A stretch of DNA of 38,058 nt from Myxococcales bacterium 68-20 (GTDB lineage: Bacteria; Myxococcota_A; Polyangia; Polyangiales; Polyangiaceae), in NCBI GenBank assembly GCA_001899635.1, contig MKVQ01000029.1, positions 107,483-145,540 of the forward strand. The letters are read 5' to 3'. Under the pieces are notes generated by a model. The model searched no databases. It had not been told where the DNA came from and saw nothing but the letters and a program-made list of their open reading frames with translations. Below are positions 10,854 to 38,058 of the stretch, in pieces. The position numbers were made by a program, and so were the translations under genes. Each line of letters begins with the position of its first letter. Within the stretch, counting starts at the first letter, position 1.

Positions 10854-11246
10854 GCTCGTCCAAGGCTATCAGAGCCTCCGGCTCGGCTTCGAGTTCCCGC
10901 TCATCCATGCAGCACGAGACGCCTACATGGCCCCCTCCGCTCGAGCTCATCCTCACGTCCTGCGCTCGCGGAGCCGGCGGTGGCGACGGATCGTGTCGCT
11001 CGGAGACCGGCGTCACCCCTGAGGCTCCCCCTTTGGACCCACGAACGTCGTTCAGCTGCGCTGGACCGAACGTCTCTTGGGCTACGCGACACCAACTGGC
11101 TCTGCATCGGCACGGGAACGCCCCACTTCAACAGTTTCCGGATCATCCCGACTGACAGAGCGAAGGGTAACCCCTGAGGGTGATGTGCATGAGCGATGGC
11201 TCGTGCTCCCTTTGGAAGTCATGCGTCGAGGGGGAGCGCGAGATCG
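10854..11246. other. Intergenic region without a supported gene
   Basis: 393 bp between the AgmX-like start and the nuclease-like remnant. Short ORFs exist on both strands, but none has a recognisable sequence or ribosome site. The 10-mer ACCCCTGAGG occurs twice (11015-11024 and 11170-11179). I see no RNA gene. It may contain decayed coding sequence like the segment to its right. Confidence 0.4.
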
Positions 11247-11675
11247 ATGAAGGTGCTGGCCGGCCTCGGACTCGGCGGTCCGACGGTCGCAATGGCCGCG
11301 AACGCTTCGACGCGAGCGTCGCTCGGCCGGCCCGCGTGGGGTCAGGCCGGCCTCCTCCGCGACCTCGAGCTCCGCATCGGCTCGTCTCCAATCACCGAAT
11401 CGGCGAGCGCACGCATTCCTCGCTGGACCGCCCGCATCAAGTCGCTCGCGGCAGCGAATGCATTCTACAACCGATCCTTCTCCGTCGACGAGCTGGGGAC
11501 GGCGGTGACGCTCCTCGAATGGCGCGACGCGCTCGTCGAGGCCGGCTGGGATGGCGCACCGATTGCGGGTGGGGGCGAGCGGCTCAATGCTCTCGCCGCG
11601 CTCGAAGGCCATGAGCGTGAAGGGGCGGAGCCCGGCCACGCCGACCGCCTCGTCCGCGTCGAGCGGGCGATCGCG
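11247..11675 (+). pseudogene. 5' remnant of a large nuclease-like gene (forward part)
   Basis: From ATG 11247 (GGGGAG about 11 bases upstream) the plus strand encodes MKVLAGLGLGGPTVAMAANA, then RPAWGQAGLLRDLELRIG, ARIPRWTARIKSLAAANAFY, SFSVDELGTAVTLLEWRDAL and GHADRLVRVERAIA. From memory this resembles the N-terminus of the long PD-(D/E)XK nuclease/AddB-like proteins found in myxobacteria, which run several hundred residues more. Resemblance stops near 11675, and the frame drifts on to a stop at 11900 with no family features. The next family-like stretch lies on the opposite strand immediately beyond (11682 upward), so the gene appears broken by an inversion. Family assignment is moderate and rests on recollection only. 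Confidence 0.5.
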
Positions 11676-11681
11676 AACCAC

Positions 11682-11850
11682 GAGCGGCTCGGCGTCGCGA
11701 CAGCGGATGACGACGTCCGATGCGGTCGATGTTCGACGCTGCGCGAGGAGCGCTGCGGTGAGCTCGGCGAGATCGCCCGGCGTGTCACCGCGCAGGAGAA
11801 GGAGCGTCCCATCACCCCGCGACACCAAAGCCCAACTCTCAAGACCGTGA
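11682..11850 (-). pseudogene. Inverted internal fragment of the same nuclease-like gene
   Basis: Read on the minus strand, this segment gives ESWALVSRGDGTLLLLRGDT, then PGDLAELTAALLAQ, and DVVIRCRDAEPL ending at 11682. In the large nuclease-like proteins I compare with from memory, a GDGxLxLLRGDT...LAEALAAxL...DLVVVR block lies downstream of the part encoded at 11247-11675. Here it abuts that part within about 7 bp but in opposite orientation. This points to an internal deletion plus inversion. The upper boundary (about 11850) is approximate. Confidence 0.4.
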
Positions 11851-11853
11851 CCC

Positions 11854-11873
11854 TTCAGGTGATTACGAGGGGC
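11854..11873 (+). promoter_or_regulatory. Candidate target (PAM plus seed) of the cryptic crRNA-like guide
   Basis: TTC at 11854-11856 is followed by AGGTGATTACGAGGGGC. The pseudo-spacer at 12052 begins AGGTGATTTCGTGGGGC. Positions 1-8, 10, 11 and 13-17 match; 9 and 12 differ; matching ends at 18. In type I systems position 12 is one of the flipped-out bases that tolerate mismatch. TTC fits the TTN PAM published for the Geobacter type I-G system. The site lies 43 bp upstream of the small ORF at 11916, where Cascade could block a promoter. I see no convincing -10/-35 pair. Confidence 0.6.
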
Positions 11874-11915
11874 TCGCCCTTGCCACGACCGCCTGAATGA
11901 CGACGTTGGCGCCCG

Positions 11916-11993
11916 ATGAAGGAAATCAAAATATCACTGACATTCGTCTTGCGCATCAACATCACACCTAAACTGCGGTATCGCGCCTACTGA
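11916..11993 (+). CDS. Candidate small toxin ORF (CreT-like position), 25 codons
   Basis: ATG 11916 to TGA 11993 encodes a 25-residue basic, partly hydrophobic peptide beginning MKEIKISL and ending RYRAY. It is clearly richer in A and T than everything around it, and uses codons rare in this GC-rich genome (AAA, ATA, TCA, ACA, TTG, CCT, TAT). CreT toxins of CRISPR-regulated toxin-antitoxin modules are equally tiny, and several act through rare codons that titrate scarce tRNAs. Its place, after a guide-matching site and before a crRNA-like element, is what CreT would occupy. No Shine-Dalgarno is evident. An overlapping 24-codon ORF (11897-11971) in another frame is an alternative. Function is inferred from position only, and the ORF could be fortuitous. 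Confidence 0.3.
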   Translation: MKEIKISLTFVLRINITPKLRYRAY

Positions 11994-12015
11994 CGACACG
12001 ACGATCACGTGCATA

Positions 12016-12106
12016 CGCTCGGACGTGCGGCGGCGCCGGCTCCGTTGAAGCAGGTGATTTCGTGGGGCGACTGGATCTCGACTCACCGTCTCCGGCGCCG
12101 GCGCCG
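12016..12106 (+). ncRNA. Cryptic one-spacer mini-CRISPR (CreA/CreR-like guide RNA)
   Basis: 12016-12051 matches the 36-nt array repeat at 26 of 36 positions without gaps. The last 14 (GGCTCCGTTGAAGC) are identical, including the full 8-nt 5' handle GTTGAAGC. The hairpin half is degenerate. A 36-nt pseudo-spacer (12052-12087) follows; array spacers are 34-42 nt. The next bases, GTCTCCGGCG, match 8 of the first 10 of a repeat and run into the palindrome GGCGCCGGCGCC (12094-12105). GGCGCCGGC occurs on both sides of the pseudo-spacer. Orientation equals that of the main array and cas genes. Known CreA antitoxin and CreR regulator RNAs look like this: degenerate repeats, an intact handle, and a spacer with only seed-region complementarity to a nearby promoter. 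Expression is not shown. Confidence 0.65.
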
Positions 12107-12241
12107 TCATCGTCGTCGTCGTGTAACGTGAAGGCCCTCGCGCACTGGGAGGCTCGACGCCCTCCGTCGCGGCGCCGCCACCGGTGGAACGCACGACCGC
12201 TCCCGTAGGCGAGATAGCGCAATCAATGAAGTGGGCTCGTC

Positions 12242-12264
12242 ATGACAATGACTTTTATATCTTG
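12242..12264 (+). promoter_or_regulatory. AT-rich island, candidate cas operon promoter
   Basis: ATGACAATGACTTTTATATC and flanks form a locally AT-rich patch about 160 bp before cas3 in otherwise GC-rich DNA. TTATAT or TATATC could serve as a -10 element, but no good -35 lies at the right spacing. If real, the transcript has a long 5' leader containing the inverted repeat at 12303-12327. Confidence 0.3.
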
Positions 12265-12302
12265 TCGAATCGCCCCAACTCCGTATCGTGAGAAATGCTG
12301 TC

Positions 12303-12327
12303 GCGTGCGACGCATGACGTCGCATGC
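12303..12327. repeat. Inverted repeat in the cas3 5' region
   Basis: GCGTGCGACG (12303-12312) and CGTCGCATGC (12318-12327) pair at 9 of 10 positions around a 5-nt loop. It lies between the AT-rich island and the cas3 start (12424; GGAGG at 12407-12411). It could be an operator for a cas regulator or an mRNA hairpin. Confidence 0.4.
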
Positions 12328-12423
12328 CTGAGATAGGGTCGCGGAGCGCCGCAGTCGTGGCGTGAAGCGGCACAGCAGGGCCCCACCGATCTTGGTGCGC
12401 TGCACTGGAGGACGGACGACACG

Positions 12424-15009
12424 ATGAGCACGTACCAGCAATGGTTCTCCGAGGTCACCGAGGAGCCCCGCGGGCCCTATCCGTGGCAGCTCGAGCTGGG
12501 CGAGGCGGTCGACTGTGCCGACCGGGTTCTCCGCATTCCGACCGGATTTGGAAAGACGGCAGGGACGGCACTCGCTTGGCTCTACAACCGCTGCGTGCGC
12601 CGTGATGAGCGCTGGCCCTTGCGCCTGATCTTCTGCCTGCCGATGCGGGTGTTGGTCGAACAGACGGAGCGCGTGCTCGAAGACTGGGTGAAGCGCGCCG
12701 GGCTCGAGGTGCCGGTCTTCACGCTTCTCGGCGGTCGCGAAGCTGCCCGCTGGGTCGACACGCTGGACCGTCCGGCGATTCTCGTCGGCACGCAGGACAT
12801 GCTGCTCTCGCGGGCGCTCAACCGGGGTTATGCATCGGCGCGCGGCCTGTGGCCGATGGAGTTCGCCGCGCTTCATCACGATGCGCTGTGGATCGTCGAC
12901 GAGGTTCAGCTCATGGACACCGGCCTCGCGACGACCACGCAGCTCGCCGCCTTCCGCATGGACGACACCGCGCGAGACCGGCCCCGGTTCCGTCCTGCCT
13001 TCACCTGGTGGATGAGCGCCACACTTCAGCAAGGCTGGCTGTCGACGATCGACTTTCGCTCGGCGCACGACCTCCCCCGCACCGCCATACCAGCGGCGCG
13101 GCGCGAAGGAGGACTGTGGGACGTCCGCAAGCGCCTCTCGTTTCGGCGAGACACGAGCACACCGGACGAAATCGCGGAGCTGGCGCTCGGTGCGCATCGC
13201 GAGGGCAAGCTCACTCTCGTCATCGTCAACACCGTCGATCGTGCGAGCAAGGTCTTCGCGTCCCTCGAGAAGGCGCGGAGGAAGTCGAAGCGCGCTTGTG
13301 AGCTCGCCCTCGTCCACTCTCGCTTCCGCGGCATCGAGCGCCGCGGCTGGGACTTTCTTCGGAAGAAGGCACCGGTTCCGTCCGATGGTCGGATCGTCGT
13401 GGCGACCCAGGTCGTCGAGGCCGGCGTCGACGTGTCGTCCAGCGTCCTCATCACCGATCTTGCGCCGTGGTCCTCCCTCGTCCAGCGCTTCGGCCGAGCC
13501 GCTCGCTACGCTGACGAGAGCGGCGAGGTGATCGTCGTTGGAGACGTCCCGAAGAAGGAGAGCGACGCGCGCCCCTATGCGCTCGACGCGCTCCAAGCGG
13601 CAGCCGACGTCCTCGCTGAGCTCGCACGAGACGCGGCCGATGTCGGACCGGCGACTCTGGAGAAGCTCGAGGAACGACTGGACGCGGCCCATCTCGCCCA
13701 GCTCTACCCGTACGAGCCTGCGCACGTGCTCCGGCGCCCCGACTTCGACGATCTGTTCGACACGTCGGCGGATCTCTCGGGCGCAGATCTCGACGTCGGT
13801 CGCTACATCCGCTCGGGGGAGGAGCGTGACGTCTCCGTCTTTTGGCGCACGGTCGAGGGCGAGCCGGGCACACTCTCCGATGTGCCGTGGCCGTCGCGCG
13901 ACGAGCTCTGTCCGGTCCCGGTCGCTGACCTTCGGAAGCTACTCGAGCGCGAGGAAAAGAGGGCCTATGTCTTCGACTACCTCTCCGGAAAGTGGGCGAG
14001 ACGTCGCAGCAAGGATCGCCTGGTCCCTGGAATGACCGTTCTCCTCGCCGCGGACGCCGGTGGCTACCGGCAAGATGCGGGCTGGGACCCGGCGAGCAAG
14101 CAGGCCGTTACCCCGCTGTCTGTCGGCGGCCACACGTCTCCGTTGCTCGAAGCGAGCCTGGCGAGCGACGACGACACCCTCTCGAGCGCGCCTGGCTACA
14201 AGACGATTCGCGCGCACGGGCGTGAAGCGGCGCTGGAGGTAGCACGGCTCGCATCCAGCTACGCGCTCCCGTCAGACCTCGCTCGTCTGCTCTCTCTCGC
14301 TGCTCGCTGGCACGATGTCGGCAAAGCGCATCCCATATTTCAAGCGGCGATCTCCGACACGGCACGTGGCCGCGACACACGGTTCGGAGGCCGGAACGAT
14401 CTCGCAAAGGCACCAGCGGACGCGTTCAAGCGCCCGCCCTATCCGAACCGCCCCGGCTTTCGACACGAGCTCGCAAGCACCCTCATGCTGTTCGAGGTGC
14501 TCCGGCGACGCGCACCGGACCATCCCGGTTTGCTGGGGTCACATCTCCAGCTCCTCTCGTTGATCGGCGACGCACCAGAGGAGGTGCCGACCGCGGAGCG
14601 GCTCGACGCGCATCCTCTCGCCGACGAGCTCACCGCGCTCAGCGCCGACGAGCTCGACCTCGTCGCGTACCTGGTCTGCGCCCATCACGGCAAGGTCCGC
14701 GGCCGATGGGCGAGCACACCTCAGGACATCGAAGCCGAGCACGGCGGCATTCACGGCGTCGTATCCAACGACAAGATACCGGCGTTCGCCTTCGAAGATG
14801 CGTCAGGCGACGAAGCGCAGCTTCCGGAGCTCACGCTCTCGCTCGCCGCTGCAGCCGTCGGTATCGGGAGTCGCTACGGCGCGTCCTGGACGGATAGGAC
14901 GTCTCGCCTGCTGGAACGCTATGGCCCCTTCGCCCTCGCGTTCCTCGAGACAGTGCTCCGCGTCGCCGACTGGCGCGCCTCCGCTCTTCCACCCGAGGAG
15001 TCACCGTGA
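12424..15009 (+). CDS. cas3: Cas3 helicase-nuclease, type I-G (HD domain at C-terminus)
   Basis: 861 residues. Cas3 is recruited to Cascade-bound DNA, unwinds it with ATP and cuts single strands. SF2 helicase motifs are present in order: Walker A IPTGFGKT (residues 38-45), Walker B DEVQ (159-162) in place of the usual DEAD/DExH box, motif III SAT (198-200), ATQVVEAGVDV, and motif VI QRFGRAAR (from 354). The HD nuclease is C-terminal: WHDVGKAH (H630, D631), RHEL (H681) and CAHHGK (H754, H755), so the metal-binding set is complete. Helicase first and HD last is the arrangement in type I-G. GGAGG precedes the ATG by 12 nt. The gene ends overlapping the next by GTGA. It appears fully intact. Confidence 0.95.
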   Translation: MSTYQQWFSEVTEEPRGPYPWQLELGEAVDCADRVLRIPTGFGKTAGTALAWLYNRCVRRDERWPLRLIFCLPMRVLVEQTERVLEDWVKRAGLEVPVFTLLGGREAARWVDTLDRPAILVGTQDMLLSRALNRGYASARGLWPMEFAALHHDALWIVDEVQLMDTGLATTTQLAAFRMDDTARDRPRFRPAFTWWMSATLQQGWLSTIDFRSAHDLPRTAIPAARREGGLWDVRKRLSFRRDTSTPDEIAELALGAHREGKLTLVIVNTVDRASKVFASLEKARRKSKRACELALVHSRFRGIERRGWDFLRKKAPVPSDGRIVVATQVVEAGVDVSSSVLITDLAPWSSLVQRFGRAARYADESGEVIVVGDVPKKESDARPYALDALQAAADVLAELARDAADVGPATLEKLEERLDAAHLAQLYPYEPAHVLRRPDFDDLFDTSADLSGADLDVGRYIRSGEERDVSVFWRTVEGEPGTLSDVPWPSRDELCPVPVADLRKLLEREEKRAYVFDYLSGKWARRRSKDRLVPGMTVLLAADAGGYRQDAGWDPASKQAVTPLSVGGHTSPLLEASLASDDDTLSSAPGYKTIRAHGREAALEVARLASSYALPSDLARLLSLAARWHDVGKAHPIFQAAISDTARGRDTRFGGRNDLAKAPADAFKRPPYPNRPGFRHELASTLMLFEVLRRRAPDHPGLLGSHLQLLSLIGDAPEEVPTAERLDAHPLADELTALSADELDLVAYLVCAHHGKVRGRWASTPQDIEAEHGGIHGVVSNDKIPAFAFEDASGDEAQLPELTLSLAAAAVGIGSRYGASWTDRTSRLLERYGPFALAFLETVLRVADWRASALPPEESP

Positions 15010-17141
15010 GTCTGTTCGTTCACGCCCTGCGCGGTTGCGCGCCAGCACCGCTCGCTCACTACCTCAAGGCCCTCGGCGTCTTGCGCCTCGTTGCGACGCA
15101 GGCTGACGAGAAGGCCCGCGGCCTCTGGAAGGATGGCGTCTTCTTCCTGGCGACCGCGCTCGACGAACCGAGCCTGGTGCGCTTCTTTCTCGAACGCTAC
15201 TCACCGACACCGATGCTGAGCCCGTGGAACGGCGGGAGCGGCTTCTATCCAGGTGACAACAAGGATGGCTACGGAGCACTGCGCGCCTCCAAGGCCGAGC
15301 GCTTTGCTCCGATTCGTACAGCCATCCTGCACGCCGAGTCCCTCGTGCAGGGCCTCACCGTCCGCCCTGCAGCCGAAGAGAAGGAGCGACTCCTCCGCCG
15401 TTGCGTGGCGACGTGGGACGCGACCAGCATCGCCTGGCTTCGCGCGGCCTTCACGTTGGATGGATCGGGCGAGCCGAGCTACCCAGCGCTCCTGGGCACG
15501 GGTGGGAACGACGGGCGCCTCGACTTCACCAACAACTATCTGCAGTGGATCGTGAAGCTCTTCGACGTCGATGCGGGGACGTCGGTGTCAGGCTCGGACG
15601 CGCTGCTGCGCCTCGCGCTCTTCCGTACGCCAGCCCCCGGTCTCGAGAGCGCAGCAATCGGGCAGTTCTTCCCGGGCGCCGCCGGTGGAGCGAACGCGAG
15701 CGCCGGCTTCGACGGCGCGAGCCAGGTCAATCCCTGGGACTTCCTGCTGATGCTCGAGGGTGCGCTCGTGTTGCGCGTGGCTTCCCTGCGCCGCCTCGAC
15801 TCGGACGACCTCGTCCAAGCCGCTGCGCCCTTCGCACTGCGGGCACAAACCTCGGGCTACGCGAGCGCTTCACCAGCAGATGCCTCCGCGCGCGGCGAGC
15901 AGTGGGTTCCACTCTGGTCGGGCGCAGCCACGCTCGCCGAGGTGAACGCGCTCTTCGACGAGGGACGGCTTCACGGTGGCCATCGCGCCGCTCGGAAGAC
16001 GCTCGATGCGACACGTGCCCTGGCGAATCTGGGTGTGGCACGGGGAATCGACGCCTTTGCTCGGTTTGGCTACTTCGAGCGTAACGGTCAGTCGAACCTC
16101 GCCGTTCCTCTCGGAATCATGCGTGTGAAGCACCGGCCCGAGGTGCGTGTGCTCGACGAGCTCGACGGCTTCGTTCGGACCCTCGGCTTCGCGGCCGACA
16201 AGACGGGCGCGCCACTGTCGCTCCCGCGTGCGGCCCGCGCACTCGAACGCGCCATGCTCGCGGCGAGCTTTCCGACAGCGACACGCGAGACCTGGGCCGA
16301 GCTGGTCTGCGTGCTCGGCGAGGTGGAGCAGGGCTTTCTCGCGCACGGCAAGAGCACCAAGGAAGCGAACCTTCGACCTCTACCGCGGTTGTCTCCGCGG
16401 TGGCTCGAGCTCCTCGGCGACTCCGACGAACATGACGAATCCGACCGCGCCACCGAGCTTCGCCTCGCGATCGCGATCGCCTCGCAGACCCACTCGAAGC
16501 TCGGACCACTCCGGGCGAATGCACTCCCGCTCGCCGCGCCGAGGTTCACCTCGTTCGAGACCACCGCAGACTCGCTCGCGAGCAATCCGAGCGTCGTGTG
16601 GAGCGGTCGCTCGCTCGTCGACGACCTCACCGCGGTCGGGCTCCGCCGCACGATCGACGGTGTCCGCGAACGGCTAGAAGCATTCCCGCTCGTCGGCCGG
16701 CGCAGCGCATCGCTCCCGGACGTGCAGCGCTTCCTGGAAGGCCGCGTCGACGACAGGCGCATCGCACGCCTCGTTCGCGGGCTGCTCGCGATCGACTGGG
16801 CCCGAGTCGAAGAACGCCACACGCCCCGCTCGGGAGAGCCTCTCGCGCTGCACGCGCTGGTACGCATGGCCTACCTCCCACACGACGTTCATCCACTCCT
16901 CCCCCGTCTAGATGCGACTCCACTACGACTGCTCGCCAGCGGTCGCCTGAAGGACGCCTCGACCATCCTGATGCGCGGTCTGGTTGCGAGCGGGGTCCGC
17001 GCGAAGGTGCGCGTCGTCGCCGGTGACGCTGACTTCGCGCGACGCCTCGCTGCCTCGGCGGCCATTCCGCTATCGAAGTCCGACTACATGCGCCTGATGG
17101 CGCGTCTCATCAAACCGTTTGTCCAGGAGCTCGAAACATGA
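15006..17141 (+). CDS. csx17: Csx17 (Cas8u2), large subunit of type I-G Cascade
   Basis: 711 residues. Csx17 is the type I-G large subunit, equivalent to Cas8, expected to read the PAM and help recruit Cas3. The conserved N-terminal features are visible: LRGCAPAPLAHYLKALGVLRL, and LSPWNGGSGFYPGDNKDG with the family hallmark PWNGGSGF at residues 73-80. Further blocks are LLGTGGNDGRLDFTNNYLQ and VNPWDFLLMLEGALVLR, and VPLGIMRVKHRPEVRVLDELDGFVR later. The GTG start overlaps the cas3 stop (GTGA) and its own stop overlaps csb1 (ATGA), so translation is coupled. No frameshift or missing block was noticed. Csx17 would also be needed for any CreA- or CreR-type repression by the cryptic guide upstream. 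Confidence 0.93.
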   Translation: MSLFVHALRGCAPAPLAHYLKALGVLRLVATQADEKARGLWKDGVFFLATALDEPSLVRFFLERYSPTPMLSPWNGGSGFYPGDNKDGYGALRASKAERFAPIRTAILHAESLVQGLTVRPAAEEKERLLRRCVATWDATSIAWLRAAFTLDGSGEPSYPALLGTGGNDGRLDFTNNYLQWIVKLFDVDAGTSVSGSDALLRLALFRTPAPGLESAAIGQFFPGAAGGANASAGFDGASQVNPWDFLLMLEGALVLRVASLRRLDSDDLVQAAAPFALRAQTSGYASASPADASARGEQWVPLWSGAATLAEVNALFDEGRLHGGHRAARKTLDATRALANLGVARGIDAFARFGYFERNGQSNLAVPLGIMRVKHRPEVRVLDELDGFVRTLGFAADKTGAPLSLPRAARALERAMLAASFPTATRETWAELVCVLGEVEQGFLAHGKSTKEANLRPLPRLSPRWLELLGDSDEHDESDRATELRLAIAIASQTHSKLGPLRANALPLAAPRFTSFETTADSLASNPSVVWSGRSLVDDLTAVGLRRTIDGVRERLEAFPLVGRRSASLPDVQRFLEGRVDDRRIARLVRGLLAIDWARVEERHTPRSGEPLALHALVRMAYLPHDVHPLLPRLDATPLRLLASGRLKDASTILMRGLVASGVRAKVRVVAGDADFARRLAASAAIPLSKSDYMRLMARLIKPFVQELET

Positions 17142-18124
17142 CCGTCGACCTCGCACCGCTGTTCACGAATGAGACCCTTCCGACACGCCTCCTCTTCGAG
17201 GTCGAGCTCAAGCCGGTGCAGGGCTCCCGGTTCCAGCCGACTGGGTTTCCTGATCTCGGCGCCGCCGTCTACGACACAGTCGAAGGGACCCGCCTCCTCG
17301 TCGAGAGCGCCCAGAGCATGGCGAATCGCCTCGAGAGCGTCTGCTGGGAGCCGTCCACGAACAGCCTCCCCGAAGAGCTGCAAGGCCTGTCATACGTGCG
17401 TGTCGAGCAGAAGGGCGCGTACCTGACCAGCACTCTGACCGAAGCCCATCGACTGAACTCGCCGTACATCCTCGAGAGCAAGAACAAGTCGTTCTTCGAG
17501 GAGCTCCAGCAGCACACCAAGGAGCTCGAGAACGGCGCCATCTCGCGCCCGAAGCTCGCGCGGCTCATCCTCCGCTACGACGCGAACGCGCTCCTGCACG
17601 GCGTCTTCCTCGCGAAAAAAGAGCTGGTTGGCGGCAGGCTCCGCCTCGAGCGTGCCCTCAGCGCGTTCATCGAGGCCGAAGACGTTCGCGTCGCCGCCTC
17701 GGGCGGCGTGAAGAACGATCACGTAAATCCAAAGGGTGGGGCAAAGGACGGTTTGGGGGGTGCAAAAGAAGGCTTCGGCAACGTGCCGTTCCAGCGCGAC
17801 GAGTACACCGCGCGTCGCATCGTGGCGTACTTCAACCTCGACCTCGAGGAGATCCGTGGTTTCGGCGTGGGCGAGGAAGCCGAGCGTATGCTGGTCCTCC
17901 TCGCTCTCTACAAGATCCGTAAGCTCCTCGACGGGCGACTCCGATTGCGCACGGCGTGCGATCTCGAGGTCGCGGGTGACGCCCCGATCACCGCGAAGCG
18001 GCCGGCGGGGTTCAAGCTGCCAGCGCTGAACGATCTCCGGACGGCTCTCCGGAGCGCGGTGAAGGCGTGCGCCTCGCAGTTCGCTGGCAAGGACGGTGTC
18101 ACCGTCGTCGAGTTCCAGGCTTGA
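17138..18124 (+). CDS. csb1: Csb1 (Cas7, GSU0053 family), crRNA-binding backbone of type I-G Cascade
   Basis: 328 residues. Csb1 is the Cas7-type subunit that polymerises along the crRNA spacer. The family start (LPTRLLFEVELKPVQGSRFQPTGFPDLGAA) and the block DHVNPKGGAKDG...EGFGNVPFQRDEYTARRIVAYFNLDLEEIRGFG are present. Within that block a Gly-rich element is repeated (GGAKDGLGGAKEGFG), where related proteins from memory have a single copy, so a small in-frame duplication seems to have lengthened a loop; the underlying DNA at about 17735-17770 is G-rich and repetitive. It overlaps csx17 by ATGA and ends 2 bp before csb2. It is otherwise of normal length and intact. Confidence 0.93.
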   Translation: MTVDLAPLFTNETLPTRLLFEVELKPVQGSRFQPTGFPDLGAAVYDTVEGTRLLVESAQSMANRLESVCWEPSTNSLPEELQGLSYVRVEQKGAYLTSTLTEAHRLNSPYILESKNKSFFEELQQHTKELENGAISRPKLARLILRYDANALLHGVFLAKKELVGGRLRLERALSAFIEAEDVRVAASGGVKNDHVNPKGGAKDGLGGAKEGFGNVPFQRDEYTARRIVAYFNLDLEEIRGFGVGEEAERMLVLLALYKIRKLLDGRLRLRTACDLEVAGDAPITAKRPAGFKLPALNDLRTALRSAVKACASQFAGKDGVTVVEFQA

Positions 18125-18126
18125 TC

Positions 18127-19782
18127 ATGACGGTACTCGCGTACCGATTTCCTGGGGGTCGCTATCACGCGACGCCCTGGAATGCCCACGTGAACGAAGG
18201 GCTCGTGGAATGGCCGCCGAGCCCATTTCGCATCCTTCGCGCGCTGGTGGCGACCGGGTATGGCCGATTGGGCTGGACGGCGATCGAGGAAACAGCGCGT
18301 GACCTCTTCGAGCGCCTCTCGTCCGTGCTCCCATCGTACTCATGTCCCGTCGGAACGGTCGCCCACTCGCGGCACTACATGCCGGTCAAAGGAACTGGCA
18401 CCAACGCGACTACCACCAAGGTGATCGATGCATTCCTTAGATTGCCTACGAACGCGACACTCTTTGTTCGATATGACGTCGAACTTCCGGATGCTCCGCG
18501 CGCCCTACTCGCGTCACTCGTCCGGGCACAGCCATACCTCGGACGTGCCGAGGCCTGGGTCGAAGGCGAGCTGCTGAGCCGAGCTCCCGACGGACTCCAC
18601 TGGATAGTCCCGCTGAGCGACTCGTCCGCGCCGGGGGAGGAGCGGGTCGAGCTCCTCGCCAGTGAGGTACCCGATGTCTATCACCGCTGGCGGGCAGACT
18701 TCATCGCTCGCGAGGTCGAGCGCCGTGAAGAAGCGGATCGGGCGAAGGCAGCCGCGAAGGGGAAGACCTTCAAGGGCATCTCGAAGAGTGACCGTGCGAA
18801 GATCGAAGCTCAACTCCCGCGCGACGTCGTCGATTCGCTGCTTCAAGACACGACCAGCCTCCGCAAGGACGGCTGGAGTCAGCCACCGGGAACGCGCTGG
18901 ATAGGATACGCTCGACCCGTCGATGCACTCGTACCGCGAGTCGTGACTCCGTCACGCCGCGAGCGCACGAAGCGCCCGACGGCAGCGCTCCTCGCGCTCT
19001 CGTCCGATAGCGCGCGCGCCGATGTACTTCCGCCCATCGCCGATGCCGTACGCCGGTGCGAAGCGCTGCATGAGGCGCTCGTACGTCGCTCGGATCCTGG
19101 AGACGGGCCGAGCCCTTGCTTCACGGGGACCGGCGCCAACGGCCAGCGCGACACCGATCACCGGCACGCGAGCCTGATCCCCCTCACGCTCGGCAAGCGA
19201 AAGGACCGGCTCGATCATGTGCTCGTCTACTGTCCGATGGGCTTCGATGACAAGGCCCACCAGGCCCTCTTCGGCATTCGAAAGACCTGGGCAGGTGACC
19301 TTCCCGACCTGTTCGTGACCTTGGCAGGGCTCGGGTCAGTCGAGTCGCTCCGGCAGACCGTGCCACTCATGTGCAGTGCGCGCACCTTCCGTAGCGAGAC
19401 CGCGTTCGTTCCCGCGCGCTTTCTCAAAGCCAAGGGAAAGGACTCTCTTCTCGAGCAGGTTCAACGGGAGCTCGAGTTCCGAAACCTTCCTCGTGCAGCG
19501 AACGTTGAAGTCGAGGTCATCGATGGGCGCTGGCTTCCCGCCTCCGCGGTGAGACCGGGGCGTCGCGCATCCGACCTGATCTTGGCCGATGGGAATGGCG
19601 AGTCGAGCCGACCGAGCGCGCGTTTCCGTTCCTTCCTGCGCGCCCGCGCGAAGAGGCCGCCGCCCGTTGCGTTCGGTCTCTCCCTCCGCCTCGCGTTCGA
19701 CACGCCGGTCGAAGGTCCGATCCTGCTTGGCTACGGCTCACACTTCGGGCTCGGAGTCTTCTCACCCGAGGGAGGCATGTGA
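18127..19782 (+). CDS. csb2: Csb2 (Cas5-Cas6 fusion, GSU0054 family) of type I-G
   Basis: 551 residues from ATG 18127. In type I-G one polypeptide combines a Cas5 role (holding the crRNA 5' handle) and a Cas6 role (cutting repeats to make crRNA). The N-terminal half begins AYRFPGGRYHATPWNAHVNEGLVEWPPSPFRILRALVATGY, typical of the family. The C-terminal RAMP part ends with FGLSLRLAFDTPVEGPILLGYGSHFGLGVF, whose Gly-rich GYGSHFGLGVF loop is the Cas6-like signature; catalytic residues cannot be assigned by eye. Its handle ligand should be GTTGAAGC, retained exactly in the pseudo-repeat at 12016-12051. Two bases separate it from csb1. An 89-bp gap follows before cas4-cas1. Confidence 0.92.
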   Translation: MTVLAYRFPGGRYHATPWNAHVNEGLVEWPPSPFRILRALVATGYGRLGWTAIEETARDLFERLSSVLPSYSCPVGTVAHSRHYMPVKGTGTNATTTKVIDAFLRLPTNATLFVRYDVELPDAPRALLASLVRAQPYLGRAEAWVEGELLSRAPDGLHWIVPLSDSSAPGEERVELLASEVPDVYHRWRADFIAREVERREEADRAKAAAKGKTFKGISKSDRAKIEAQLPRDVVDSLLQDTTSLRKDGWSQPPGTRWIGYARPVDALVPRVVTPSRRERTKRPTAALLALSSDSARADVLPPIADAVRRCEALHEALVRRSDPGDGPSPCFTGTGANGQRDTDHRHASLIPLTLGKRKDRLDHVLVYCPMGFDDKAHQALFGIRKTWAGDLPDLFVTLAGLGSVESLRQTVPLMCSARTFRSETAFVPARFLKAKGKDSLLEQVQRELEFRNLPRAANVEVEVIDGRWLPASAVRPGRRASDLILADGNGESSRPSARFRSFLRARAKRPPPVAFGLSLRLAFDTPVEGPILLGYGSHFGLGVFSPEGGM

Positions 19783-19871: not shown

Positions 19872-21539
19872 GTGAAACACTGGGCTCACAGGGGGGGGCA
19901 GGACTTGGCGGAACGACACGAACAGGAACGCGATGCACCGGTGGTGGCGCGCGCCAAGCCGTTGCCTCGCAAGCTGCCGCTCGCGAGCGAGGCTCCGGAG
20001 CTCGTCCCAGCGCGGATGATCAACGAGGCGCTCTACTGCGAGCGGCTCATGTACCTCGAGTGGGCGCAGGGCGAGTTCGCGGACAATGCGTTTACCGTCG
20101 ACGGCCGAGCCGTCCACGCGCGCGCCGATACCGCTGGAGGGGAGCTTCCACCGCCCGCGTTTGCGCCCACCGCATCCGGTGGCGAGACCGGCAGCAAGGT
20201 CTCGAGGGCGAAGGTACGGACGAGTGCCGACGATGACGATGATGACGAGGGCGCGTCCGATCCGGGGCCCGCGCCCTACCAGGCGCGATCAATCTGGCTG
20301 TCGTCCGAAGCGCTCGGGATGACCGCCAAGATCGACGTCGTCGAGGGCGATTCCGCAGGGCTCGTCGTCCCGATCGAGTACAAGCGCGGGGCTGCTCCCG
20401 ACGTACCGGAGGGCGCCCACCTACCGGAGCGCGCGCAGCTCTGCGCGCAGGTGCTCCTCCTGCGCGAGCACGGCTACCGGTGCGATCACGGCGAGATCTA
20501 CTTCGCGCGAACACGACGGCGCGTGCGGATCGAGATCGATGACGCGCTCATCGAGACGACACGCGAGACCGCTCGCCGTGCTAGGGAGCTCACGACCGCA
20601 GGCACGATCCCGCCGCCGCTCGTCGATAGCCACAAGTGCGAAGGCTGCTCGCTCGTCGGCATCTGCCTCCCTGACGAGACGAACCTCTTGCGAGGTGTGG
20701 GGCCGACTGCGGACACCGGCCTTCCGGAAGCCCCGGACGCGATGGACGCCTTCTGGCCCGTCGATGCGGGCGATGAAGACGAAAGCGACGACAACGACGT
20801 CGAGCTTCGCAGACTTCAGCCCGCGCGCGATGACGAGCTTCCCCTCTACGTCCAGGAACAGGGCGCGCGCATCTCGCTCTCGGGCGAGGAGCTCATCGTT
20901 CGAGGCAAGAAGGGCGAGACCCGCGCGCGCCTGGCGAACGTCTCGCAGATCAGCCTCTTCGGGAACGTCCAGATCTCGACACAGGCGCTCCGCGCGACGC
21001 TCGAGCGAGGGATCTCAGTATCGCTCCTCAGCACCGGCGGCTGGTTCTACGGCCGGGCGACGGGCGTCGAGTCGAAGAATGTCGAGCTTCGCGTCGCGCA
21101 ACACCGGGCGATGGCTGACACCGAGACCTGCCTCCGACTCGCGCGCGGCGTCATCGCGTCGAAGATCCGCAACTCGAGGACGCTGCTCCGCCGTAACCAC
21201 GCCCAGCCGCCCGAGGTGACGCTGTTCGAGCTCGAACAGCTCGCGAAGAAGGCGGAGCGTGTCGAGTCACTCGGATCCCTTCTCGGCATCGAGGGGACCG
21301 CCGCACGAAGCTACTTCTCGGCCTTCTCCGGCATGCTCAAGGGCGACGCCGCCGGCGCGTTCGAGCTCGACGGGCGCAACCGAAGACCGCCGAAGGATCC
21401 GGTGAACGCGCTGCTCTCCCTCGCCTACTCGCTCCTCACGAAGGAGCTCGCACACGTCACGGCCTCCGCCGGTCTCGACCCCTCCTCGGCTTCTACCATC
21501 AACCGCGCTTCGGCCGCCCCGCGCTCGCTCTCGATCTGA
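19872..21539 (+). CDS. cas4-cas1: Cas4-Cas1 fusion, truncated by a frameshift in the Cas1 part
   Basis: 555 residues as given. The Cas4 half (PAM-selecting nuclease that trims prespacers) has its four Fe-S cysteines C56, C256, C259 and C265, and RecB-like D155, E169-Y-K171. A long acidic linker (DDDDDDEG region and near 300) joins it to Cas1, the integrase. Cas1 starts at [14 protein letters not shown] and keeps the first catalytic Glu (E474 in [11 protein letters not shown]). After SAGLDP the frame is wrong: one base is missing near 21483-21484, so SSASTINR... replaces the expected (F/Y)[24 protein letters not shown]. The catalytic His and the acidic residues of that stretch are lost, so integration should fail. 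The start may be GTG 19872 or TTG 19905, the latter with a G-run upstream. Confidence 0.9.
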
Positions 21540-21831: not shown

Positions 21832-22122
21832 GTGCGCCAGACGTTCATCGTCAGCTACGACATCGGTTGCCCGAAGCGCCTGCGCCGCGTCTACCGCCTC
21901 ATGCGCGGCTGGGGGGATCACATCCAGCTCTCGGTCTTCCGCTGCGAGATGACCGCCCGCGAGCTCGTCGAGCTACGCAGTCGGCTCAATGACGTCATCA
22001 ACAGCGTGGAGGATCAGGTGCTCTTCGTCGACGTCGGTCCTGTCGAAGGACGAGGGAGCACCTCCATCCGGGCAATCGGGAAAGTCTACACGCCACCGGA
22101 GAGGCGCGCCATCGTTGTGTAA
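21832..22122 (+). CDS. cas2: Cas2, structural partner of Cas1 in spacer acquisition
   Basis: 96 residues from GTG 21832. Cas2 forms the central dimer of the Cas1-Cas2 integrase. The first strand TFIVSYDIG carries the conserved Asp, followed by PKRLRRVYRLMRGWGDHIQLSVFRCEM, the standard ferredoxin-like pattern, then LFVDVGP in the last core strand. Length is typical. It follows the Cas1 fragments by 9 bp and is the last cas gene before the leader. It looks intact, so only Cas1 is damaged in the adaptation module. Confidence 0.95.
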   Translation: MRQTFIVSYDIGCPKRLRRVYRLMRGWGDHIQLSVFRCEMTARELVELRSRLNDVINSVEDQVLFVDVGPVEGRGSTSIRAIGKVYTPPERRAIVV

Positions 22123-22529: not shown

Positions 22530-25500
22530 CTCTCCGCCGATCACCATCGGCGGCTCCGTTGAAGCATAATTACCATGATGCAGTTGTGGCTGCCATTAAG
22601 GCTGCTCTCCGCCGATCACCATCGGCGGCTCCGTTGAAGCCGCGGGCGGCGACCGGATCGCGCTCGTCGTGCTCGGGCTCTCCGCCGATCACCATCGGCG
22701 GCTCCGTTGAAGCCTCGTCGTGGATGTAGAGCGGGCGCGGCGGGATCTGCTCTCCGCCGATCACCATCGGCGGCTCCGTTGAAGCCTCAAAAAGACCGAC
22801 GAGCCGATCAAGCCGTTCGTGAACTCTCCGCCGATCACCATCGGCGGCTCCGTTGAAGCACCCAGAAAGGCGAGCGGCGCTCGACGATCTATGCGCTGCT
22901 CTCCGCCGATCACCATCGGCGGCTCCGTTGAAGCATAGCCTGCACGGTTTCGATGCGAGACGCGAGCTCGCCGCTCTCCGCCGATCACCATCGGCGGCTC
23001 CGTTGAAGCGGTAGACATCAAGCTCGCGTTCCGCACGCGCTCGCTCCCTCTCCGCCGATCACCATCGGCGGCTCCGTTGAAGCTTCGGCCTCTTCGCCAT
23101 GGAGGAAGAGAAGGCGTACGAGCTCTCCGCCGATCACCATCGGCGGCTCCGTTGAAGCCGCCGCCACGCCGAGCAGGTCGCGAAGGCCTCCGCCGACTCT
23201 CCGCCGATCACCATCGGCGGCTCCGTTGAAGCGAGATCAACGAGAAGCAGCTCTGGAAGGTCCGTCCTCTCCGCCGATCACCATCGGCGGCTCCGTTGAA
23301 GCGCTGCATCTCGTGCTGAAGCTCGCCGAGCAGCGCGAGCCTCTCCGCCGATCACCATCGGCGGCTCCGTTGAAGCTTGGTGTCGCGCTCGAAGGCCTCA
23401 GGGTCGCGTACGGACTCTCCGCCGATCACCATCGGCGGCTCCGTTGAAGCTCCGAGATCTCCGCGAGCCGATGCCGCTCGCGGTCTCCTCTCCGCCGATC
23501 ACCATCGGCGGCTCCGTTGAAGCCAGGACAACGAGATCCTGGTCGGCCTCAAGGGGACCTCTCCGCCGATCACCATCGGCGGCTCCGTTGAAGCCCCTAG
23601 GATCCGTTCTTTCCACACGTCAGACGTGAGCAACTCTCCGCCGATCACCATCGGCGGCTCCGTTGAAGCGGCGCGCATCCCGACACGACGATCCGAGTCG
23701 TCGCGTGGCCTCTCCGCCGATCACCATCGGCGGCTCCGTTGAAGCGTGAACACGCGGCTGATGCTCTCCCACCCCTTGGAGACTCTCCGCCGATCACCAT
23801 CGGCGGCTCCGTTGAAGCGCCGCCAGCCACGCCTTCCACTCGTCGGAGAGCGGGAACTCTCCGCCGATCACCATCGGCGGCTCCGTTGAAGCCGGTACAC
23901 CAACGAGCGCACCGGACAGACGGTGCTCGTCTCTCCGCCGATCACCATCGGCGGCTCCGTTGAAGCGGCGCGCGCGCGGAGGGTCTGGGGCGTGAGGTTT
24001 CGCCTCTCCGCCGATCACCATCGGCGGCTCCGTTGAAGCTGGGAGAACGTGGAAAAGGAAGGGCCGATGGTTCGGCCCTCTCCGCCGATCACCATCGGCG
24101 GCTCCGTTGAAGCGTCGATCACGACGACGGGACCACGTCCGTGGTCGACCTCTCCGCCGATCACCATCGGCGGCTCCGTTGAAGCGAGCTGAAGCGAGCG
24201 GTCTGGTTCTTCGCCAAGCGTGCTCTCCGCCGATCACCATCGGCGGCTCCGTTGAAGCGCGAACCCTGACGCTGCCTTGAACGAGGCCGCCGCGCCTCTC
24301 CGCCGATCACCATCGGCGGCTCCGTTGAAGCTCCGTACTCGCCCTCTCTCGTCGCCGTCCCGGTCTCCTCTCTCCGCCGATCACCATCGGCGGCTCCGTT
24401 GAAGCTAAGCTTTGCATTCATAATGGTCGGAGCCTTTCACTTTCCTCTCCGCCGATCACCATCGGCGGCTCCGTTGAAGCAAGGGCAACGCATCATCGGC
24501 GAGCCCGCAGTCCGCACCTCTCCGCCGATCACCATCGGCGGCTCCGTTGAAGCGCGCAGAAGGAGTTCTCGACGTACGAGCAGGACAACAAGCGCTCTCC
24601 GCCGATCACCATCGGCGGCTCCGTTGAAGCCTCGGGAAGGAGACCCTCTCCGAATACCTCGACCGCTGCTCTCCGCCGATCACCATCGGCGGCTCCGTTG
24701 AAGCGCTTCCTGCGGGCGATCGCTGGTGCCACGCCCGAGGACGCTCTCCGCCGATCACCATCGGCGGCTCCGTTGAAGCGGCGCTCAACAGGTCGAGTCG
24801 ACCACGGGATACGTGGCTCTCCGCCGATCACCATCGGCGGCTCCGTTGAAGCGACAAGGAGCCGCCGCACGCCTGGCATTTCGTCAACGGCCTCTCCGCC
24901 GATCACCATCGGCGGCTCCGTTGAAGCGGGCCGATACCCCGGAAGAGAAGGGAAAGAGCGAGCGGGCTCTCCGCCGATCACCATCGGCGGCTCCGTTGAA
25001 GCTGCTCGCTTCGTAGAGGAATGCACGAAATTAGGACTCTCCGCCGATCACCATCGGCGGCTCCGTTGAAGCGCCGAGTACCGGGCCGAGACGCAGCGCC
25101 AGATCGACGCCTCTCCGCCGATCACCATCGGCGGCTCCGTTGAAGCGACCGCGCGACTGAGGAGTCTTGACGTATGGGCCCGTCGCTCTCCGCCGATCAC
25201 CATCGGCGGCTCCGTTGAAGCTCCTCCCAGGAGCGGACCACGTCCGGAGCGTAGACGCCTCTCCGCCGATCACCATCGGCGGCTCCGTTGAAGCAGGCAT
25301 CGTGCACTCGCCCCAACCACCCTCATCGAGCGGCTCTCCGCCGATCACCATCGGCGGCTCCGTTGAAGCTCATTGTACGTGGTCCTATCGGCGTCAGCCC
25401 ACTCCACTCTCCGCCGATCACCATCGGCGGCTCCGTTGAAGCCGCCCCGTCTCGCGAATCGCCTGGGCGACGCATTCTCGACTCTCCGCCGATCACCATC

Positions 25501-25851
25501 GGCGGCTCCGTTGAAGCCGGGCTTACCCGACGCTCGACGTCGGCATGCGCGTCTCTCTCCGCCGATCACCATCGGCGGCTCCGTTGAAGCTGGCCGAGCA
25601 GCGTACCGCTCGTGCCGAGGCCCGCAGCCTCTCCGCCGATCACCATCGGCGGCTCCGTTGAAGCGCCGCGTGCCCGCGCGAGGGATGGGCTGGCGACGCT
25701 ACTCTCCGCCGATCACCATCGGCGGCTCCGTTGAAGCAGGTCCTGCCATCCGCGGTCAGTCAGCAGTCGAACGAAGCTCTCCGCCGATCACCATCGGCGG
25801 CTCCGTTGAAGCTTCTTCGCCACGGCCTTGTTCAGCTCGTCGCGGTACCGC

Positions 25852-25887
25852 CTCTCCGCCGATCACCATCGGCGGCTCGGTTGAAGC
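25852..25887 (+). repeat. Variant repeat 46 (C to G at position 28)
   Basis: Reads CTCGGTTGAAGC at its 3' end instead of CTCCGTTGAAGC (base 25879). The hairpin and 8-nt handle are unchanged. The spacer after it (25888-25926) is one of the rare AT-rich spacers. Confidence 0.9.
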
Positions 25888-28800
25888 TTATACTTACCTA
25901 TTTGTAATTGTTCCATCTCCTCCGAACTCTCCGCCGATCACCATCGGCGGCTCCGTTGAAGCGGCACGTCGGGCGCGAGCGGCTTCCAGCTCCCGTCCGT
26001 GCTCTCCGCCGATCACCATCGGCGGCTCCGTTGAAGCGACCGTGAGCGCGCCGCGTCCAGGCGACCCGATCCGCGTCTCTCCGCCGATCACCATCGGCGG
26101 CTCCGTTGAAGCGCGGATGACGAACGAGAGCCCTTCGGAGAGCCGCCAGGCTCTCCGCCGATCACCATCGGCGGCTCCGTTGAAGCTGCGACCGCAACAA
26201 GCGCTGGTATTCTGTCTGCCAACCCTCTCCGCCGATCACCATCGGCGGCTCCGTTGAAGCTGACCGGACTTGCCGCAACGCGATCCGCAGCCGGGCAAGC
26301 TCTCCGCCGATCACCATCGGCGGCTCCGTTGAAGCCTGCCCGCTCGGGCCGTTGCCTTGCCGCTCCACGACCTCTCTCCGCCGATCACCATCGGCGGCTC
26401 CGTTGAAGCGCCAGCACCTCGGGGTGTGGCGAGACGGCCTCGGTGATCTCTCCGCCGATCACCATCGGCGGCTCCGTTGAAGCGGGCACCGCGCCGAGCA
26501 GGACGCCCGACTTCTTCCGGTCTCTCCGCCGATCACCATCGGCGGCTCCGTTGAAGCGAGCGGGGGAAGACCGGTGATTGCGGGGTGGGTGCCTCTCCGC
26601 CGATCACCATCGGCGGCTCCGTTGAAGCAAGCGCGAGCCCGATGACGTCGCGCCGCGATTCGACTCTCCGCCGATCACCATCGGCGGCTCCGTTGAAGCG
26701 TCGGGATCGTGGCCGCTGTTCCGCTCGCGAACTTGCTCTCCGCCGATCACCATCGGCGGCTCCGTTGAAGCGCGAGCAGCAGGCCGCCGACCGCGGCGCT
26801 GATGACGCCGGCTCTCCGCCGATCACCATCGGCGGCTCCGTTGAAGCGTCGAGCGCGCGACGCATCATGAGCGCCGCGAACTGTCCTCTCCGCCGATCAC
26901 CATCGGCGGCTCCGTTGAAGCGAGCTGGCGAGTGCGAGCTGGAGTGCCGACGGGCTCACCTCTCCGCCGATCACCATCGGCGGCTCCGTTGAAGCGCGCG
27001 CTCGATGAGCGCCGAGAGCCCGGGGCGGTTTCTCTCCGCCGATCACCATCGGCGGCTCCGTTGAAGCGGTACGCCGCTGCTCGCGGCGTACCACACCGCC
27101 TGGCCTCTCCGCCGATCACCATCGGCGGCTCCGTTGAAGCGTCGCATCGAACCTTCCGCTGACGCGCAGACACGAGCCTCTCCGCCGATCACCATCGGCG
27201 GCTCCGTTGAAGCATCTCGCCCTCCGCGTATCGACGCGCGCGATGTCGGCTCTCCGCCGATCACCATCGGCGGCTCCGTTGAAGCGAGGGTACGCTTGCG
27301 GGCGTCGCCGCTTCCGCTTCCGCAACTCTCCGCCGATCACCATCGGCGGCTCCGTTGAAGCTGGCTTGACCTGCGTGACGGGGATGAAGTCCGTGCTCAC
27401 TCTCCGCCGATCACCATCGGCGGCTCCGTTGAAGCTCTATTCCAGATGTTAATCGCCTAAATCCACGACCATTCTCTCCGCCGATCACCATCGGCGGCTC
27501 CGTTGAAGCACTGCGGGGATCCCGCCGAGAAGACGCACGGGGCATTCTCTCCGCCGATCACCATCGGCGGCTCCGTTGAAGCGAGCGCGATGAGAGTGGC
27601 TGGCCGACGGTGGCGTCGGTCTCTCCGCCGATCACCATCGGCGGCTCCGTTGAAGCTCGAGCGTCGCGATGACGCGAGGCGCGGAGACGGCAGCCTCTCC
27701 GCCGATCACCATCGGCGGCTCCGTTGAAGCGAACTCGAAGACCGAGCGCGACGCGCTCAACCCGGTCACCTCTCCGCCGATCACCATCGGCGGCTCCGTT
27801 GAAGCGCCGCGGCGGCGCCGACTCCGCGCGCTTGCTGCGCGGGCTCTCCGCCGATCACCATCGGCGGCTCCGTTGAAGCTCTGCAGCGATCGCGTTGTAC
27901 GTTCGGATCGCCTTCCTCTCCGCCGATCACCATCGGCGGCTCCGTTGAAGCTGCGGGATCTTCGGACGGGACGATCTCCCGGAGGACCTCCTCTCCGCCG
28001 ATCACCATCGGCGGCTCCGTTGAAGCGACCAATCCTGGGAGGGTCCAGATCACGCAGCGAATGCCTCTCCGCCGATCACCATCGGCGGCTCCGTTGAAGC
28101 ATGTAGCCCACGGCCGTCCACGCGCAGTAGTAGGGGTCTCTCCGCCGATCACCATCGGCGGCTCCGTTGAAGCCTCGTCGTCCTCGCCGGCCTCGGGATT
28201 CAGCTGCGGTGCTCTCCGCCGATCACCATCGGCGGCTCCGTTGAAGCATGCTCGCGTGCCTCGACATTGCCGCGAGTGACAAGCTCTCCGCCGATCACCA
28301 TCGGCGGCTCCGTTGAAGCCAGGGGCTAGGCGCGGACGCGACCGCGCACGCGGGCTGCTCTCCGCCGATCACCATCGGCGGCTCCGTTGAAGCCGGGCAT
28401 GCTCGCGGACTCGGGCACGCTCGACGCCGACCTCTCCGCCGATCACCATCGGCGGCTCCGTTGAAGCTTCGACGCCGGCTACCGACAGCGACGCCATCCA
28501 CCGCTCTCCGCCGATCACCATCGGCGGCTCCGTTGAAGCGGATCTTCGACGGCGCGCGCGATCTTGACCGCTGCCTCTCCGCCGATCACCATCGGCGGCT
28601 CCGTTGAAGCGGGCTCAAACGTTACGGTGGGTGCTCCAGTCGTTCTTCTCTCCGCCGATCACCATCGGCGGCTCCGTTGAAGCCAGACCTCAGTAAAGCT
28701 ACGGATTACCAACCGAGGTCAACTCTCCGCCGATCACCATCGGCGGCTCCGTTGAAGCGACGACATGAGGGAGTCGGACTTGATGTAGGCCTCGACACCT

Positions 28801-38024: not shown

Positions 38025-38058
38025 TGCCCGCGTGTGCGCCAGTTCAGTTCGACGACGG

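What the first reader, a model, noticed from the sequence alone, without database searches (positions are those of the whole stretch)
12016..12106. Cryptic crRNA-like guide upstream of cas3: a CreA/CreR-type element in a type I-G system
Seen: a stand-alone sequence matching the array repeat at 26/36 positions, with the last 14 nt exact (a 14-mer is expected by chance about 3 in 10,000 times in a window this size at even base composition; somewhat more in GC-rich DNA). A 36-nt spacer-sized segment and a weak second repeat start follow, in the same orientation as the array. Known: CreA antitoxin RNAs and CreR cas-regulating RNAs are degenerate single-spacer CRISPRs beside cas genes that keep the handle and use seed-only pairing to repress a promoter through Cascade. 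Inference: this locus encodes such a guide. I know of none described for type I-G, but could not search.
Basis: partly seen in the sequence, partly recalled or inferred. Interest (0 to 1): 0.88.

Follow-up and report, generated by a model that had tools for sequence, protein, structure and literature searches.

The report
Self-regulating guide RNA beside type I-G CRISPR
Just upstream of its type I-G CRISPR genes this bacterium carries a worn-down one-spacer mini-CRISPR whose spacer partly matches a nearby stretch of its own DNA beside a correct recognition motif, and similar units lie over promoter-like DNA beside cas3 in other type I-G systems, so it most likely lets the immune complex turn down its own expression instead of cutting.

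Summary
Window 12016-12051 matches the array repeat at 26/36, last 15 nt exact; the 14-mer GGCTCCGTTGAAGC has one copy outside the array in the 11.9-Mb genome. There is one: the guide from 12052 matches 11857-11873 (15 of 17, first 8 exact) beside TTC, the commonest PAM of myxobacterial G-type CRISPRs (PMC11237760). None of 209 array spacers or 6000 shuffled guides does as well. The pattern recurs: in 113 loci with a relative of this cas3, 14 had a repeat handle plus a nearby TTN target, against a mean of 0.17 for 116 decoy handles; with added loci, 16 of 137, all 16 with a csx17 relative. Positions 6 and 12, where type I guides do not pair, are often mismatched, and targets tend to lie on promoter-like DNA upstream of the guide. 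Best reading: a CreR-type autorepressor guide; a CreA/toxin reading is not excluded. A possibly new variant: in some relatives the two half-repeats pair with each other across the spacer, clear in three loci, weaker in the window. Expression and repression are untested.

The parts
11854..11856 (+). TTC PAM of the self-target
   Evidence: TTC is the commonest PAM for myxobacterial G-type CRISPRs (PMC11237760, passages)
11857..11892 (+). protospacer (36 nt); positions 1-17 match the guide at 15 of 17, mismatches at 9 and 12; little match beyond 17
   Evidence: seed pattern TTNAGGTGNTTNCG occurs once in the genome, reversed controls 2 and 3
11880..11907 (+). weak promoter-like pair TTGCCA / GACGTT, spacing 16, overlapping and just after the protospacer
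   Evidence: background p 0.051; the consensus scan found none in 11700-12440
12016..12051 (+). psiR1, ectopic degenerate repeat
   Evidence: 26/36, last 15 exact
12031..12039 (+). psiR1 stem arm CGGCGCCGG, ending 4 nt before the handle
12044..12051 (+). 8-nt 5' handle GTTGAAGC expected after Csb2 cleavage
   Evidence: sequence; type I-G gives an 8-nt 5' handle (PMC9638904, passages)
12052..12087 (+). guide (pseudo-spacer), 36 nt
12088..12123 (+). psiR2-like flank with arm 12092-12100 CCGGCGCCG complementary to 12031-12039
12424..15009 (+). cas3 (TIGR02621, type I-G Cas3g)
15006..17141 (+). csx17 / cas8g (TIGR04113)
17138..18124 (+). csb1 / cas7g
18067..19782 (+). csb2 / cas5-cas6 fusion (start codon not fixed)
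19872..21539 (+). cas4-cas1 fusion
21832..22122 (+). cas2
   Evidence: PF09827
22530..38058 (+). canonical array, 209 repeats counted in the window, reaching the contig end

Best explanation
12016-12123 is a degenerate single-spacer mini-CRISPR. Its transcript is cut by Csb2 to a crRNA-like RNA with handle GTTGAAGC and guide AGGTGATTTCGTGGGGC... Loaded into the type I-G complex (Csx17, Csb1, Csb2), it binds 11857-11873 beside TTC. Pairing is too short for Cas3 cutting, so the complex sits on the DNA and blocks transcription rightwards through the mini-CRISPR and on towards cas3. Canonical crRNAs compete for the complex, so repression would ease when crRNAs rise or the complex is inhibited. Shown from sequence: ectopic repeat, PAM, partial match, and recurrence of this anatomy over promoter-like DNA in other type I-G loci. 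Inferred: transcription, processing, repression, and that cas3 is among the repressed genes. In this lineage the two half-repeats may pair across the spacer and so replace the two hairpins.
For: Guide/target 15 of 17 with TTC; 14 of 15 scored positions, against at most 11 for 209 array spacers, at most 13 for 6000 shuffles and at most 13 for 5,551 random window 36-mers. In 113 loci 14 hits; the other 15 PAM dinucleotides give 6 in all; 116 decoy handles average 0.17, maximum 3. 16 of 137 after adding loci, all 16 with a csx17 relative. Thirteen of the 15 hits within 1,500 nt of cas3 have the target on the guide strand and upstream of the guide, as does L246. In 10 loci with a full seed, mismatches are 14 of 20 at positions 6 and 12 against 13 of 50 at 13-17, Fisher p 0.001. 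Promoter score peaks on the guide strand with the -35 at offset 12-23 from the target start (13 targets); combined p 1.3e-9 over 15 targets. In L039 and L044 promoter, mini-CRISPR and cas3 follow in one direction, in L057 with a csb1 fragment before cas3; target and handle are 73-79 nt apart.
Against: In the window the target is 187 nt from the handle and 568 nt from cas3, and an AT-rich stretch at 12240-12269 could be a separate cas3 promoter. No consensus sigma-70 promoter or terminator was found in 11700-12440; the window promoter p is only 0.051 and five of 15 targets have p above 0.1. The promoter offset range was chosen after seeing several targets. Seed position 9 is mismatched; positions 1-5 and 7-11 were needed in haloarchaeal CreA (PMC8501985). 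The closest relatives by cas3 (L122 63%, L142 65%) show no such unit. 121 of 137 loci have no accepted guide/target pair by this search. No RNA data.
Confidence: 0.58

Rival explanations
1. CreTA-like addiction module: the 11893-12015 gap encodes a small toxic RNA or peptide (CreT) whose promoter the guide represses; losing the complex would release it.
For: Order target, roughly 120-nt gap, guide is that of creTA operons, where CreA autorepresses the shared promoter (PMC8501985 passages). 11910-11969 is 53-57% AT in a 33% AT window, and the gap holds a 25-codon frame from ATG 11918 (read by eye). L046 has a ParE toxin gene between target and guide.
Against: No Shine-Dalgarno-like site before that frame (by eye); the frame itself was not searched. 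The larger frames at 11082-11900 have no Pfam or NCBIfam match. Two other mid-gap loci (L151, L105) show no shared small frame (by eye). Five short-gap loci (73-90 nt) leave little room for a toxin.
Confidence: 0.22
2. Relic: a stray, decaying repeat whose neighbour resembles nearby DNA by chance.
For: psiR1 stem half is degraded and psiR2 is not recognisable by identity; three loci have the repeat without a target.
Against: Handle is intact; target beats all 209 real-spacer decoys and 6000 shuffles; the same design recurs with unrelated guides.
Confidence: 0.08
3. Repeat decoy: an RNA that binds Csb2 or Csb1 without a guide function, like Racr RNAs.
For: Solitary repeats can act so in phages (PMC10651486, abstract and passages).
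Against: Does not predict a PAM-flanked target in cis or spared positions 6 and 12.
Confidence: 0.04
4. The guide acts on a leftward or unannotated transcript crossing 11857-11892 rather than on its own promoter.
For: Frames on both strands at 11082-11900 overlap or abut the target; in L103 and L143 the target is on the other strand.
Against: Those frames have no family and codon-position GC unlike the cas genes; L103 and L143 are among the weaker matches (9 of 10 seed).
Confidence: 0.08

Closest known systems
CreR cas-regulating mini-CRISPRs (Liu et al. 2023, paper not held; recalled, and seen through review passages in PMC12737573 and PMC12948488)
   Same: Degenerate mini-CRISPR beside cas genes, intact handle, partial match with PAM over promoter-like DNA upstream of cas genes
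   Different: Type I-G; shown, as I recall, for I-B, I-E and V-A. In the window the site is not proven to be the cas3 promoter, and the half-repeats can pair across the spacer
CreA of CreTA (H. hispanica, H. hubeiense; PMC8501985 passages)
   Same: Two degenerate repeats, 8-nt handle, seed pairing sparing positions 6 and 12, TTC PAM, guide downstream of the promoter it represses
   Different: No toxin identified; type I-G; window seed mismatch at 9
CrePA (protein toxin under a CreA-like guide; review PMC12737573 passages)
   Same: Geometry of L046, with parE between target and guide
   Different: ParE instead of a KilA-N protein, and it is in L046, not in the window
Mini-arrays and standalone repeats of Shmakov et al. 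2023 (paper not held; recalled)
   Same: Computational class of crRNA-like units near cas genes with partial targets
   Different: Could not check whether type I-G units were listed there; I do not recall pairing across the spacer from it

Membership tests
type I-G CRISPR-Cas (host system) | cas3g, csx17, csb1, csb2 with cas4-1 and cas2 | tested here: met
CreR | degenerate mini-CRISPR next to cas genes with intact 5' handle | tested here: met
   the second repeat is not recognisable by identity
CreR | guide partly complementary to a PAM-flanked site nearby | tested here: met
CreR | the site is the cas promoter | tested here: inconclusive
   promoter-like p 0.051, no consensus promoter, 568 nt from cas3; clearer in L044 and L057
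CreR | Cascade-dependent repression of cas genes | not testable with these tools
   needs expression data
CreA/CreTA | linked toxin gene under the targeted promoter | tested here: inconclusive
   no family for frames at 11082-11900; 11893-12015 was only read by eye
CreA/CreTA | seed pairing at 1-5 and 7-11 | tested here: not met
   window 9 of 10, mismatch at 9, but 13-17 all match; 10 of 10 in ten other loci
CreA/CreTA | Cas6-processed 5' and 3' handles | not testable with these tools
   needs small RNA-seq
canonical two-hairpin mini-CRISPR | second repeat recognisable with its own hairpin | tested here: inconclusive
   best identity 16/36; a local fold of -12.6 kcal/mol exists, but pairing across the spacer is stronger than the two local folds together, -46.9 against -28.5. 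Second-repeat hairpins are plain in L039, L044, L046, L049, L057, L060, L065, L088, L103, L156 and L246

The most novel reading that the evidence does not exclude
Some Myxococcota type I-G systems make a circularly permuted guide RNA. The 3' half-repeat before the handle and the 5' half-repeat after the spacer pair with each other, so one duplex serves both as the Csb2 cleavage site and as the 3' element of the crRNA-like RNA. This split-stem guide autorepresses the cas locus.
Probability: 0.35. Interest if true: 0.8.

Novelty: new variant of a known kind. Interest (0 to 1): 0.64.

Why it matters
It would extend RNA-guided self-control of CRISPR to type I-G, where Cas5 is fused to Cas6 and does not hold the 5' handle in the usual way (PMC9638904 passages), and it gives a repeatable anatomy: TTN PAM, protospacer often over the -35 box, guide 73-200 nt downstream in 11 of 14 same-strand cases and up to 475 nt. 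The split-stem form would be a different way to build a crRNA. Two carriers are named isolates (L044 Thioalkalivibrio halophilus HL17, L094 Roseomonas genomospecies 6 ATCC 49961), so the idea can be tested directly. L046 suggests that the same logic can hold a ParE toxin in check.

Tried and rejected
A second repeat by sequence identity: rejected. A consensus sigma-70 promoter or terminator in 11700-12440: none. Rfam on 11700-12440: two matches far below their gathering scores. Families for frames upstream of the target: none. Conservation of 11830-12424 inside the genus (12 genomes): apart from the window itself only matches of about 28-42 nt in seven genomes, mostly in the low-complexity stretch after the guide. 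Whole-locus scan for guides anywhere: 21 hits against a decoy mean of 6.9 and maximum of 38 (40 decoys), so that scan does not discriminate outside the region upstream of cas3; L030, L038, L078, L095 and L130 were dropped because by eye they lack a repeat-like flank. The first target scan used looser limits: decoys reached 13 hits (mean 2.5) and other PAMs up to 27, against 15; it was replaced. In some searches I searched the wrong side of cas3 for minus-strand loci (my reading of their coordinates); one search replaced them. Repeat-like unit without a target: L027, L088 (its contig begins about 250 nt before the unit) and L156; L054 has a repeat-like 14-mer with one mismatch and only a weak target and was not counted. 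first scanned the wrong frame of L246; the right one is. Loci not used: the tool kept 80 of 125 relatives; several genomes matched were not fetched; L217 was fetched but left out of the scans.

Full report
System. The window holds a complete type I-G locus: cas3g, csx17, csb1, csb2, cas4-1 and cas2, then an array of 209 counted repeats that reaches the contig end. Another 27 copies of the repeat's last 14 nt lie at the start of contig C17.

Observation. The ectopic repeat at 12016-12051 is real: 26/36, last 15 nt exact, next best place 22/36. In 200 shuffles the best chance match was 25, twice. The 14-mer GGCTCCGTTGAAGC has a single copy outside the array in 11.9 Mb (by arithmetic, since the listing was cut). 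The second repeat is not visible by identity.

Target. The guide from 12052 finds 11857-11873 at 15 of 17 with the first 8 exact, preceded by TTC. TTC is the most frequent PAM of myxobacterial G-type CRISPRs (PMC11237760, passages), and type I-G uses TTN (PMC9638904, passages). With positions 6 and 12 ignored the score is 14 of 15. The best of 209 array spacers is 11, of 6000 shuffled guides 13 (2 cases), of 5,551 random window 36-mers 13 (3 cases). The seed pattern occurs once in the genome, with reversed controls 2 and 3.

Recurrence. cas3 relatives were gathered from GTDB contigs (80 of 125 kept) and from family, order, class and phylum searches, with stretches fetched; 142 loci with the window, 137 after removing duplicates, of which 130 have at least 300 nt upstream of cas3 and 131 hold a csx17, csb1 or csb2 relative. 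In the first 113, handles with at most one mismatch within -1500 to +150 of cas3 gave 14 loci with a TTN target; the other 15 PAM dinucleotides gave 6 in all (AG 3, GA 1, GC 1, TG 1); 116 permuted handles averaged 0.17 hits, maximum 3, though with fewer occurrences (145 on average against 269). The enlarged set adds L244 and L246 at -1684: 16 of 137. They are WIN, L039, L044, L046, L049, L057, L060, L065, L094, L103, L105, L143, L151, L155, L244 and L246. By record title or kinship they come from gammaproteobacteria, an alphaproteobacterium (Roseomonas), planctomycetes, the window's phylum, and one unclassified bacterium (L103). All 16 have a csx17 relative, and no two guides share more than 17 of 36 positions. 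L103 and L143 have the target on the other strand and a 9-of-10 seed and may be false; WIN, L060, L105 and L246 also have 9 of 10. L027, L088 and L156 have the repeat but no target found.

Pairing pattern. In the ten loci with all ten seed positions matched, mismatches are 14 of 20 at positions 6 and 12 and 13 of 50 at positions 13-17 (Fisher p 0.001). Neither group of positions entered the selection of these ten. Each Cas7 of the type I-G complex flips out every sixth base (PMC9638904), and CreA tolerates changes at 6 and 12 (PMC8501985). The window fits at 12 but matches at 6 and mismatches at 9.

Where the targets lie. A sigma-70-like score was compared with local background for 15 targets: 10 have p below 0.1, combined p 1.3e-9, window 0.051, L143 0.91 (L246 not included). 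The offset range was chosen after seeing several by eye, so the combined value is optimistic. Over the 13 same-strand targets the mean score peaks on the guide strand with the -35 at offset 12-23 (5.19, against 2.76 on the other strand). In L065 the promoter is TTGACA-16-TATCAT and in L057 TTGCTT-17-TATAGT; in L246 TTGACA and TATACT can be read by eye. The best promoter near the L155 target lies upstream of it, with the -35 at offset -53. The handle follows 73-475 nt downstream of the target start in the 14 same-strand cases.

What is controlled. In L039 and L044 promoter-like DNA, mini-CRISPR and cas3 follow each other in one direction; in L057 a csb1 fragment precedes cas3; in L246 a DUF6119 gene lies between. 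In L049 and L065 the unit points away from a sigma-factor gene that precedes cas3, and in L244 it points away from cas3. In L046 the target lies between parD and parE. For the window the gap between target and guide has no known gene and cas3 starts 568 nt from the target, so CreR-like control is favoured by analogy and CreTA-like control is not excluded.

Split stem. In L143 (14 bp) and L151 (13 bp) the arm ending 4 nt before the handle is complementary to the arm starting 41 nt after it; L155 has a 7-bp stem there (register by eye) and an 11-bp stem outside it. These are the places of the 3' arm of a first repeat and the 5' arm of a second. Chance p of the longest stem in 300 shuffles is 0.000, 0.003 and 0.003. 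The window has 9-10 bp (p 0.010; duplex z -2.11), but its whole fold is not exceptional (z -1.38, 16 of 200 shuffles as good), part of its outer flank is low-complexity, and duplex energies of -42 to -46 also appeared at chance sites in GC-rich DNA of L132 and L134. In nine Myxococcota units own arms bind better than swapped arms (mean -33.4 against -22.2 kcal/mol; own best in 7 of 9 columns; the window first in its column, second in its row), whereas in nine other units they do not (-18.7 against -17.3; own best in 1 of 9 columns). L244 (z -3.50) and L027 (z -2.05) have 7-bp stems with p 0.06 and 0.10, L105 pairs further out, L156 and L088 have ordinary second hairpins, so the form is not universal in the phylum. 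A split duplex would present the same end to Csb2 as an ordinary hairpin (a duplex with the cut 4 nt 3' of one strand); this is inference. GC-rich palindromic arms can pair in more than one way.

Known or new. CreTA and CreR are established kinds (PMC8501985 and PMC9458426 passages; reviews PMC12737573 and PMC12948488 passages). In the listings and passages I saw from eight literature searches no such guide was described for type I-G, but I did not read the type I-G editing papers listed, the two key papers (Liu 2023, Shmakov 2023) are not held, and I recall that Shmakov et al. listed mini-arrays in many type I systems. I therefore call it a new variant of a known kind.

Noticed in passing
L046 4148-4826 (parD, target 4467, parE) and guide handle 4879: A ParDE pair lies before the mini-CRISPR; the guide's TTC target is in the parD-parE gap, so a type I-G guide may hold ParE in check. 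Pfam: ParD 8.5e-7, ParE 9.4e-19.
   Followed up: partly
L049 2919-3545 and L065 551-1063: A sigma-70-family gene precedes cas3 in two planctomycete loci (in L065 with one more small frame in between); the mini-CRISPR points away from it and its target lies at or near the sigma gene start.
   Followed up: partly
L246 2494-4104: An open frame between the mini-CRISPR and cas3 matches DUF6119 (1.7e-72, residues 49-533, that is from just after the mini-CRISPR).
   Followed up: partly
L057 about 222-464: A short frame starting like Csb1 but soon diverging lies between the mini-CRISPR and cas3; Pfam 1.7e-5.
   Followed up: partly
window 22530-38058: Very large array: 209 repeats in the window and 27 more repeat ends at the start of contig C17, possibly one array of about 236.
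   Followed up: partly
L142 and L144 upstream of cas3: Coding sequence that by eye looks WYL-like precedes cas3 in relatives that lack the mini-CRISPR; possibly a protein regulator instead of a guide (not tested).
   Followed up: no
window 10860-11850: About 1 kb between a TonB-like gene and the target has open frames on both strands without a Pfam or NCBIfam match among those tested and with codon-position GC unlike the cas genes.
   Followed up: partly
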